DNA of 64,000 bases from assembly GCA_024400305.1 (NCBI GenBank), contig JAKSMX010000001.1, positions 186,001 through 250,000 on the forward strand, in the 5' to 3' direction. The position numbers were made by a program, and so were the translations under genes. Of this stretch, positions 22,527-25,727 are shown piece after piece. Position 1 is the first letter of the stretch, and each line of letters begins with the position of its first letter. The stretch is from Bacteroidales bacterium. GTDB taxonomy: Bacteria; Bacteroidota; Bacteroidia; Bacteroidales; F082. The notes below the pieces were generated by a model, which saw only the letters and a list, made by a program, of their open reading frames with translations, did not search any database and was not told the origin of the DNA.

Positions 22527-22601
22527 GGTAGTTAGGTTATTAGGAGATTAGGTAGTTAGAAACCTTATCTCCTTAAACTCCTAAATATCCTACTATCCTA
22601 C
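22527..22601. repeat. Imperfect inverted repeat of GGTAGTTAGG / CCTACTATCC type
   Basis: The left arm is rich in TTAGG units, the right arm in CCTAA/TCCTA units; together they can form a long imperfect hairpin between leuS and the fucosidase gene. Similar TTAGG-unit sequence occurs at 35455, 48860, 53796 and 57780. Confidence 0.5.
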
Positions 22602-25600
22602 CACAATATTTATAATTTTTTTCGGGATGATGATGGCCTTGCGGACAACCATTCCCTCAATCCATTTCTTCGCTTCCGGCGCCGCAAGCACAACATCGCG
22701 CATCTCGTCATGGCTCATGCCGAGAGGAAGTTCGATGTCGAAACGTTTCTTTCCGTTGAACGAGACAGGATAGAGGAACGTGTCTTCGACAATATGTTTC
22801 TCGTCAAATTCAGGGAATTTCTGGTTGACGACGCTGTCGTTGTGGCCCATCTGATGCCAGAGTTCCTCGGCGATATGCGGTGCGTAAGGCGAAATCATAA
22901 TTGCAAGAGGCTCAAGGATTTCACGTTTGTTGCACTTCATGTCGGCGAGTTCGTTCACACAGATCATGAAAGCGGAGACGACTGTGTTGAACGAGATGCG
23001 TTCGATGTCTTCCTCTTCCTTCTTGATAAGCTTGTGCAAAGTCTTGAGTTCTGCTTTCGTCGCCGGTTCATCACTGATTGTCAGCTCGTTGTTCTCGCCG
23101 TTGTAAAGTTTCCAGAACTTGCGGATGAAACGGAACACGCCCTCGATGCCTTGTGTGTCCCACGGCTTCGACTGTTCGAGCGGGCCGAGGAACATTTCAT
23201 AGAGACGCAGCGTATCGGCACCGTATTTGACAACGAGGTCGTCGGGGTTCTGCACGTTGAACTTCGACTTCGACATTTTCTCGATCTCCCAGCCGCACAC
23301 CATGATATCGTTGCCGTCTTTGTCTTTCTCGAAGATGAACCGGGCGTCCTTGAGGTCATCGCGCCACACCTTAAACGCTTCTGTATCAAGAATGTCGTTA
23401 TGAACCATATTAATGTCAACACGGATGCCGTCGGTGTATTCCTCGCGGCCGGCCACGTTCTTTGATACGAAGAGGTTATGAAATTCCATCCCGTCGCCGT
23501 CTTCGAACGAAGGGACACCCTTACCTGCTATGATATCTTTGATTTTCTGAACCGTTTTCTCCAGCTCACCCGGCATGAGGATGTCGCGCAACGGAGGCAG
23601 GAACAGTTTGCAGCCGAGTTGTTTAGCTATATCTTCGTATGCGTCGGCGACCTTTTCGAGACTTGCCATCTTCTTTGTCTCGATGATGAGATTCTTCGAC
23701 GGGCAATAGAAGTCGAACTGACGGCGTCCCATCTTGTAGTCTCTCACAAACTCAACGCCGAGCTTGTTGTCTTTCAATTCCTGCCAGAGCGTCCATTCCG
23801 CCATCTTCTCGTAATTGGCGCGATATACGAAACTCGTCCTTCCCTGAATCATGCCCTGATTGACCATCTTCTTGAACGGCTCGTCCTTGCATGCGATGCC
23901 GATGTCGAACAGGAACTTGTTCCAGAAACGGCTGTAGATGAGGTGTCCTGTGCCGTGTTCGGCGCCGCCGATGTAAAGGTCAACCTGCTGCCAATAGTCG
24001 TTGGCTTCCTTGCTGAAATATTCGTTCTCGTTGTGCGGGTCCATGTAACGGAGGTAATATCCGCTTGAGCCGGCGAATCCCGGCATGGTGTTCGTCTCTA
24101 TCGGGCAGCCGTCTTCCGTGACCCAGTTCTTGGCACGCGCCAAAGGCGGCTCACCGTTGTCGGTCGGTTTGTATTGGTCGATTGAGGGGAGTTCGAGCGG
24201 CAGCTTATCTACATCCATCGGATAAGGCATTCCGTTTTTGTAATACATCGGGAATGGCTCGCCCCAGTAACGCTGACGGCTGAAGATAGCGTCACGGAGA
24301 CGGTAGTTCGTCTTGCCCTTTCCGATGCCGAGCTTCTCCAGCTCCTGAATCATGCGCATGATGCCCTCTTTAACGGTAAGTCCGTTGAGGAACTCCGAAT
24401 TGACGAGGACGCCTTCTTTCGCGTCGAACGACTCCGTCCATGCCGAAGGGTCGGTCTGTTCCTCGCCCGGTTTTGAAACAACTTGAATTACAGGCAGTTC
24501 AAAATGTCTTGCAAAAGCGAAGTCGCGGCTGTCGTGCGCCGGCACCGCCATGATAGCACCGGTGCCGTAGCCCATCAGGACATAATCCGACACCCAGATC
24601 GGGATGTGTTTGCCGTTGAACGGGTTGACGGCGTATGAGCCGGTGAACACTCCGCTCACCTTCTTCACCTCCGACATACGTTCACGTTCAGAACGGTTCT
24701 TCGCCCATGAGACGTATTCCTCAACGGCGGAACGTTGTTCTTTGGTGGTGAGTGTCTTTATCAGTTCATGTTCAGGCGCGAGCACCATGAATGTCACGCC
24801 GAACAGCGTGTCGGCGCGCGTCGTGAACACCTCGAAATCAATATCTTTGTCGGCAACTTTGAAGAACACCGATGCGCCCATCGACTTCCCGATCCAGTTG
24901 CGCTGCACGTCCTTTATCGACTCGTTCCAATCGACGGTCTCGAGGCCTTCGAGGAGGCGTTCCGCGTAAGCGGTGATTCTCAACAGCCACTGCCGCATCG
25001 ACTTGCGTTCCACCGGGAATCCGCCGCGCACCGAGAGACCGTCCTGGACCTCATCGTTGGCGAGCACCGTGCCGAGTTCCGGACACCAGTTCACCATCGT
25101 GTCGGCGAGGTATGCGAGACGGTAGTTCATCAATGTCTCCTGCTGCTGCTTCTCGCTCATCGCATTCCACTGCTCCGCGGTGAAAGTCAATGGTTTTGTG
25201 CAAGCCGCGTCGAGGCCTTCAGTGCCGCACTTGCCGAAAACCTCAACGAGTTCGGCAATAGGACGCGCATGTTTCGCCTTGTTGCAATAATAAGAGTTGA
25301 AGAGCTGGATGAACGTCCATTGCGTCCATTTATAATAATGAGGGTCACTGGTGCGCACCTCGCGGTTCCAGTCGTAGCAGAAACCGATCTTGTCCATCTG
25401 CTCGCGGTAACGGTTGATGTTCTTTTCGGTAGTGACCGCAGGATGCGTGCCTGTCTGGATGGCGTACTGCTCCGCCGGAAGCCCGTATGCATCATAACCC
25501 ATCGGGTGAAGCACGTTGAAGCCCTTCAGACGCTTGTAACGAGCGTAGATGTCTGATGCGATGTAGCCGAGCGGATGCCCGACATGAAGACCCGCCCCCG

Positions 25601-25727
25601 ACGGATACGGGAACATGTCAAGCACGTAAAACTTTGGTTTTGAGTGATCTATCTCAACTTGATACGTCTTGTTCTCACGCCAAAACCCCTGCCATTTCTT
25701 TTCAATTTCCTCAAAATTGTAATCCAT
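22593..25727 (-). CDS. leuS: Leucyl-tRNA synthetase with an inserted DUF559-like nuclease-fold domain
   Basis: 1044 residues, well above the usual 860-950. The HIGH signature is in [16 protein letters not shown] (about 37-52), editing-domain signatures include [17 protein letters not shown], and KMSKSK is at 817-822. Between FVYR (about 633) and FHNLFVSKN (749) there is about 110 extra residues: [18 protein letters not shown], then [20 protein letters not shown], then [11 protein letters not shown]. This matches the DUF559 / Vsr-like PD-(D/E)XK pattern, with the D-x9-E-x-K residues kept. The flanking LeuRS sequence is continuous and in frame, so this is an insertion, not a fusion error. Aminoacylation should be normal; the insert's role is unknown. 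Confidence 0.94.

What the first reader, a model, noticed from the sequence alone, without database searches (positions are those of the whole stretch)
23487..23820. Nuclease-fold (DUF559/PD-(D/E)XK-like) domain inserted in leucyl-tRNA synthetase
Residues ~636-747 of LeuS have no place in a normal LeuRS but read as a DUF559-type domain: [35 protein letters not shown] with D-x9-E-x-K kept, [11 protein letters not shown]. The insert sits before KMSKS, in the region where LeuRS already carries a variable domain, and both flanks are continuous. A preserved active-site pattern inside a housekeeping synthetase suggests a real second function (tRNA or DNA cleavage, or binding) or a domesticated selfish domain. 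DUF559-type inserts in synthetases may exist in other lineages, so novelty is uncertain.
Basis: partly seen in the sequence, partly recalled or inferred. Interest (0 to 1): 0.75.

Follow-up and report, generated by a model that had tools for sequence, protein, structure and literature searches.

The report
Nuclease-like domain inside leucyl-tRNA synthetase
The enzyme that loads leucine onto tRNA in this gut bacterium carries an extra domain related to a nuclease family whose intact members sit in frame inside many housekeeping genes of related bacteria; here it looks like an old, largely disarmed but still exchanged relic.

Summary
Confirmed: LeuRS (window 22593-25727, minus) holds a ~113-aa insert, aa 639-751, in one loop before KMSKS. 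It is DUF559 by Pfam (24.4 bits, cut-off 20.6), profile comparison (97.9%) and the solved protein 3HRL (E 4.7e-6). It is old: the loop is filled in at least 76 of 149 sampled family genomes and in 21 of 295 order genomes (14 families), and the 27 inserts put in a tree form one clade. The 'preserved D-E-K' is half right: of 118 inserts D is kept in 116 and E in 115, but K in 57 (N in 50), and the second D and the H of intact DUF559 proteins in none. Eleven congeners deleted the domain and kept a scar; in one an insert-free allele seems swapped in. Insert divergence often exceeds every core stretch, so insert alleles have probably been exchanged between species. The relatives are striking: DUF559 cassettes with intact active-site residues sit in frame, apparently unspliced, in LeuRS (two other sites), IleRS, ValRS, MetH, RecG and restriction genes of Bacteroidota. 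I read the insert as a domesticated or decaying relic of such an element; its exact source is unresolved.

The parts
22593..25727 (-). leuS, leucyl-tRNA synthetase, 1044 aa, the host gene
   Evidence: tRNA-synt_1, LeuRS editing domain, anticodon-binding domain; only LeuRS in the genome
23475..23813 (-). insert (aa 639-751) in place of a 4-5 aa turn of the insert-free loop
   Evidence: comparison with 42-aa insert-free loops; borders are my reading
23520..23801 (-). DUF559-homologous core (aa 643-736)
   Evidence: Pfam; hhalign 97.9%; 3HRL
23712..23714 (-). D672, first acidic residue of the PD-(D/E)XK-like motif
   Evidence: 116 of 118 site A inserts
23679..23681 (-). E683, second acidic residue
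   Evidence: 115 of 118 E, 3 of 118 D
23673..23675 (-). K685, third residue, not conserved (K 57, N 50, R 6 of 118)
23265..23279 (-). KMSKS motif (aa 817-821), downstream of the insert

Best explanation
The insert is a single-origin, domesticated or decaying descendant of a DUF559 nuclease element that landed in frame in a hairpin-like loop of the LeuRS region before KMSKS early in Bacteroidales. Because it lies in a tolerant loop and presumably folds on its own, the synthetase works with the domain in place. Intact relatives would spread by cutting an insert-free allele and being copied into the break; here the active-site set has decayed, so the domain is now passed on with leuS, exchanged between species by local recombination, and lost now and then. 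Shown: homology, place, one clade, loss scars, local divergence fitting allele replacement, lost active-site residues, in-frame cassettes with intact residues elsewhere. Inferred: independent folding, absence of splicing, homing as the original mode of spread, catalytic inactivity, and that any present role (stabilising this region or touching tRNA) is secondary.
For: DUF559 homology. One site. One clade of the 27 site A rows tested, SH-aLRT 98. Residues: second D and H absent from 118 of 118 inserts but D-E-D-H complete in 73 of 76 in-frame cassettes and 37 of 40 short DUF559 frames. Scars in 11 congeners. L113: 86-100% identical to L075 in most 30-aa stretches (three core stretches at 73-80%) but 50-53% at aa 631-690, where it is 63-83% identical to insert-free alleles of other families. 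Insert outside the range of all core windows in both pN and pS in 8 of 14 chosen pairs, the window against L033 and L034 among them. Careful trees: the insert rejects core clades A+B (p-AU 1.5e-5) and C (0.009). Cassettes in many genes; terminal inverted repeats in 2 of 3 cassettes examined.
Against: No inverted repeat flanks the window's insert, and the palindrome pattern is absent from its genome. In the domain tree site A hangs on a branch of 1.47 between a clade of 48 cassettes and all the rest, so descent from the cassette type is not resolved. The insert is under purifying selection (median dN/dS 0.081 against 0.048 in the core), which a mere relic need not be. The core data do not reject the insert's grouping B+C (p-AU 0.33), so part of the tree conflict is one-sided; 3 of 14 pairs show no excess and 3 an excess in one measure only. 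D-E-K is kept in 56 of 118 inserts, the window's included.
Confidence: 0.6

Rival explanations
1. The domain was recruited for a real LeuRS function: a nuclease fold without cutting that binds tRNA or steadies the leucine-specific region, as the Vsr-like FASTKD4 binds RNA apparently without nuclease activity.
For: Purifying selection; nearly invariant W, E, G and R residues that are not catalytic; retention across 14 families; place before KMSKS; FASTKD4 precedent (PMC11879112, passages).
Against: Lost with a scar in 11 congeners and not found in most sampled genomes of the order; median net charge of 114 inserts is 0, not basic; inserts only about 41% identical serve synthetases 87-89% identical.
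Confidence: 0.2
2. It is still an active homing-type nuclease in lineages that keep D-E-K, including the window's clade, and drives the local conversion seen around it.
For: D-x10-E-x-K in 56 of 118 inserts; divergence centred on the insert; the DUF559 profile A2 also matches 3R3P, named 'Mobile intron protein' (E 1.4e-6), which is I-Bth0305I by recall.
Against: The same excess occurs between inserts that both have E-x-N (L076/L079, L046/L052, L043/L058); the second D and H of intact DUF559 are missing in D-E-K inserts too; ordinary recombination or selection explains the tracts.
Confidence: 0.13
3. Fast divergence under selection (for example escape from a toxin, phage or inhibitor aimed at this part of LeuRS), with no mobility after a single old insertion and vertical descent with many losses.
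For: High pN in the insert; by my reading insert types follow the large core clades.
Against: pS is raised along with pN in 8 of 14 pairs; the insert-free alleles read share one loop pattern while the deletions leave scars.
Confidence: 0.07

Closest known systems
DUF559 (PF04480), e.g. 3HRL; VsrA of Caulobacter (PMC12907096)
   Same: Homologous over the core; W, D and E kept
   Different: 3HRL is a free protein with E-x-D-G-x-x-H (alignment); this one is inside LeuRS and has lost D and H. VsrA, which contains a DUF559 domain, is known to me from passages only
ShiLan domain (PMC11855218; abstract and discussion section read)
   Same: Insertion in a host enzyme, open in the host's frame, thought not to be spliced, patchy like a homing element
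   Different: Phage methylase; the HNH nuclease is hidden in another frame. Here the nuclease domain is in the host's own frame and hosts include essential bacterial enzymes
I-Bth0305I (3R3P) and Vsr-like homing endonucleases
   Same: Distant sequence relation of DUF559 cassettes (E 1.4e-6)
   Different: Intron-borne, so the host RNA is spliced (recalled)
Rickettsia palindromic elements
   Same: Repeats read in frame inside proteins (recalled)
   Different: They encode no nuclease (recalled)
FASTKD4 RAP/Vsr-like domain (PMC11879112; passages)
   Same: Vsr-like fold that binds RNA, reported as apparently without nuclease activity
   Different: Mitochondrial, another family, not described as an insertion

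Membership tests
DUF559 (PF04480) | score above Pfam's gathering cut-off | tested here: met
   24.4 bits against 20.6
DUF559 (PF04480) | D...E-x-D-G-x-x-H residues of the intact members | tested here: not met
   D 116 and E 115 of 118; D at E+2 and H at E+6 in 0 of 118. Complete in 73 of 76 cassettes and 37 of 40 short frames
DUF559 (PF04480) | restriction-endonuclease-like fold | not testable with these tools
   structure prediction switched off; only a sequence match to solved 3HRL
PD-(D/E)XK nuclease | conserved D, D/E and K | tested here: inconclusive
   met in the window and 56 of 118 inserts, not conserved over the clade
homing endonuclease element | cuts the insert-free allele | not testable with these tools
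   bench assay needed
homing endonuclease element | patchy presence at one site with local exchange of alleles | tested here: met
   the core does not reject one of the insert's groupings
intein | splicing (Hint) domain | tested here: not met
   no such Pfam domain among the 7 families listed for LeuS at E up to 10
in-frame DUF559 cassette (described here) | flanking palindromic or inverted repeats | tested here: not met
   0 inverted pairs in window 23400-24000; pattern absent from G000

The most novel reading that the evidence does not exclude
Bacteroidota harbour a class of mobile element made of a DUF559 nuclease, in some copies between palindromic inverted repeats, that inserts in frame and without splicing into loops of housekeeping enzymes, above all Leu, Ile and Val tRNA synthetases, MetH and RecG; one ancient copy became a heritable LeuRS domain that is still swapped between species by local conversion.
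Probability: 0.5. Interest if true: 0.85.

Novelty: new variant of a known kind. Interest (0 to 1): 0.68.

Why it matters
Selfish nuclease genes are thought to need an intron, an intein or an intergenic site to spare their host (recalled). Here a nuclease-derived domain sits, apparently unspliced, inside an essential enzyme, with loss scars, signs of allele swaps and relatives with intact active sites all visible, so one can ask directly how a parasite domain is tolerated, disarmed and perhaps put to use. It also hints at what the little-studied DUF559 family does. In the held library no paper holds both DUF559 and tRNA synthetase (0 papers), and 14 hold DUF559 at all. In the listings, most of them capped, I saw no paper on DUF559 domains inside housekeeping enzymes. 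Most subscription journals and all bioRxiv-only preprints are outside that library.

Tried and rejected
Chance match or frame artefact: rejected, since the insert recurs in frame in many genomes. Intein: no splicing domain. Common LeuRS domain of the phylum: not supported; in 296 genomes drawn from the phylum the only site A match at E up to 1e-8 is the window's own, and the three frames over 1000 aa besides it are cassettes in LeuRS near aa 293, HsdR and MetH. Basic, tRNA-binding surface: not supported by net charge. Descent from cassettes rather than free DUF559: unresolved. A first script that read one strand only gave misleading short frames and was replaced. A quick tree gave a doubtful core result (holding B+C raised the likelihood), so I reran it carefully. 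Palindrome pattern: found in 4 of 9 genomes searched; of the six that carry a LeuRS cassette (G053, G207, G019, G119, G308, G344) two (G308, G344) had none, and only in G207 do the exact palindromes flank the cassette. L307, a LeuRS cassette, shows no terminal inverted repeat. So repeats are not a universal feature. Of 595 pairs (35 loci) 28 passed my divergence and length filters.

Full report
Observation. LeuS (window 22593-25727, minus, 1044 aa) has the normal LeuRS domains plus a DUF559 match. Profile comparison of 21 insert regions (A1) with 14 DUF559 domains (A2) gives 97.9% probability, E 6.3e-13 over 92 columns, and A1 finds the solved DUF559 protein 3HRL at E 4.7e-6 as its best hit. 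The window's genome has no other DUF559 match at E up to 0.001 and no other LeuRS at E up to 1e-20.

Place. The insert-free LeuRS proteins read mostly share a 42-aa loop; the insert replaces its GTNK-like turn and lengthens the region to about 150 aa. Both flanks align. This is, by recall, the leucine-specific region before KMSKS (a 2013 paper on that domain is seen only as a reference).

Distribution. In the family sample 74 of 149 genomes match the 264-aa query from end to end, G403 and G434 match 222-230 residues, and G439 matches 1-79 at a contig end. In the order, 21 of 295 genomes in 14 families carry a LeuRS-type match (my reading; the 17 outside the family were fetched, two of them, G210 and G128, as partial genes). 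In 296 genomes drawn from the phylum the only such match at E up to 1e-8 is the window's own. Named relatives (best 80 of 189) are mostly uncultured Bacteroidales MAGs; L122-L125 (L124 is Candidatus Limimorpha caballi) are 92-95% identical over LeuRS.

History. On a quick core tree of 108 LeuRS rows presence of the full insert needs 20 changes, or 14 if scars count as presence. Two kinds of insert-free gene exist. Eleven congeners (L102-L112) keep insert-type flanks around a short remnant, in L105 a minimal one: deletions. Most others share the undisturbed loop. L113, inside an insert-bearing clade, is 86-100% identical to L075 in most 30-aa stretches of the core (73% at aa 151-180, 80% at 751-780 and 811-840) but 50-53% at aa 631-690, where it is 63-83% identical to insert-free alleles of other families: a local replacement, unless the MAG is chimeric.

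Exchange of inserts. Insert and core identities correlate (Spearman 0.72 over 1326 pairs), yet pairs with 87-89% core identity can have inserts 41-43% identical. Between the window and L033/L034 the insert has pN 0.14 and pS 0.61-0.62, above all 27 core windows (maximum pN 0.036-0.045, pS 0.43-0.44). Of the 14 pairs I chose, eight (L032/L033, L032/L034, L076/L079, L043/L044, L043/L058, L058/L044, L046/L052, L046/L063) exceed all core windows in both pN and pS. L068/L074 exceeds them in pN only; L033/L035 and L076/L075 in pS only and slightly; L033/L036, L076/L068 and L074/L079 in neither. With 40-codon windows the excess against L122 and L123 lies at aa 699-759; against L124 and L125 pS is as high or nearly so just upstream of the insert too. 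Careful trees: the core groups A+B (100/100) and keeps C together (100/100); the insert rejects A+B (p-AU 1.5e-5), B (0.016) and C (0.009). The core does not reject B+C (0.33), nor B (0.24). Groups were named after seeing identities, so p values are indicative.

Active site. Of 118 inserts (119 unique): W 118, D 116, E 115 (D 3), third residue K 57, N 50, R 6; D, E and K together 56. At the places of the second D and of H in intact DUF559, 0 of 118 have D and 0 of 118 have H. In-frame cassettes keep D-E-D-H in 73 of 76 and short DUF559 frames in 37 of 40; rows that share an ORF name were counted once, so 12 of 88 cassette stretches, some of them spurious short hits, fell out. Median dN/dS is 0.081 in the insert and 0.048 in the core (28 of 595 pairs passed filters).

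Relatives with intact residues. One search lists (cut off by the tool) 25 DUF559 matches in open frames of 300 aa or more; 14 of them score over NCBIfam's curated cut-offs as LeuRS (9, cassette near aa 293), IleRS (4) or ValRS (1). The other 11 include HsdR 2, three methyltransferase-type restriction genes and a DegT aminotransferase (Pfam); L022 and L011 have names below cut-off, L012 none, L217 and L218 were not scanned. Outside the order I fetched 40 regions and had 31 proteins named by NCBIfam: over the cut-offs are LeuRS 7 (four near aa 293, three near position 565 of the frame), HsdR 5, MetH 4, RecG 3, IcmF 1 and RNase HI 1 (there at the N-terminal end), that is 21 of 31; six more are below cut-off (RecB-like 2, HsdM 2, PglX-like 2) and four gave no host name. 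The other nine were not scanned. L005 has 36-nt inverted repeats (81%) 400 nt apart around the cassette, L316 (MetH) 25-nt ones (80%) 397 nt apart; L307 and the window have none of that kind. In G207 the palindrome CCTCTCCNNNGGAGAGG occurs at seven places, two of them flanking the LeuRS cassette. One genome, G076, has both the site A insert and a cassette.

Origin. The 27 site A domains put in a quick tree with 78 cassettes and 39 short frames form one clade (SH-aLRT 98) on a branch of 1.47, attached between 48 cassettes and the rest: one origin, source unresolved.

Reading. The simplest account is one old in-frame landing of a DUF559 element, decay of its active site, and continued spread or loss of the loop by local recombination. 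The scars argue against an essential second function. Precedents are the ShiLan domain (PMC11855218; abstract and discussion section) and FASTKD4 for a disarmed Vsr-like fold (passages). For DUF559 function I saw passages on Caulobacter VsrA (PMC12907096).

Noticed in passing
L303-L330, L339, L340, L202-L221, L005, L014, L019: In-frame DUF559 cassettes in LeuRS, IleRS, ValRS, MetH, RecG, IcmF and restriction-modification genes across Bacteroidota, some between palindromic inverted repeats. Possibly a new element class.
   Followed up: partly
L204, L210 (LeuRS before KMSKS): The loop region is replaced by an unrelated stretch, about 140 aa in all, starting QGMIQGLS; neither site A nor the usual insert-free loop.
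   Followed up: no
L005, L263, L266: The insert-free loop carries extra stretches of about 20-37 aa at nearly the same place, so this loop tolerates other insertions too.
   Followed up: no
L182: A site A LeuRS on a contig labelled Methanobrevibacter sp. (MAG RGIG3316); perhaps a misbinned Bacteroidales contig.
   Followed up: no
L243 (G076): One LeuRS of 1201 aa with both the old insert before KMSKS and a cassette near aa 293.
   Followed up: partly
L327-L329: DUF559 at one and the same site in RecG of three genomes, between RSKLW and PPHVLVMTATPIPRT, with hardly any repeat peptide left.
   Followed up: partly
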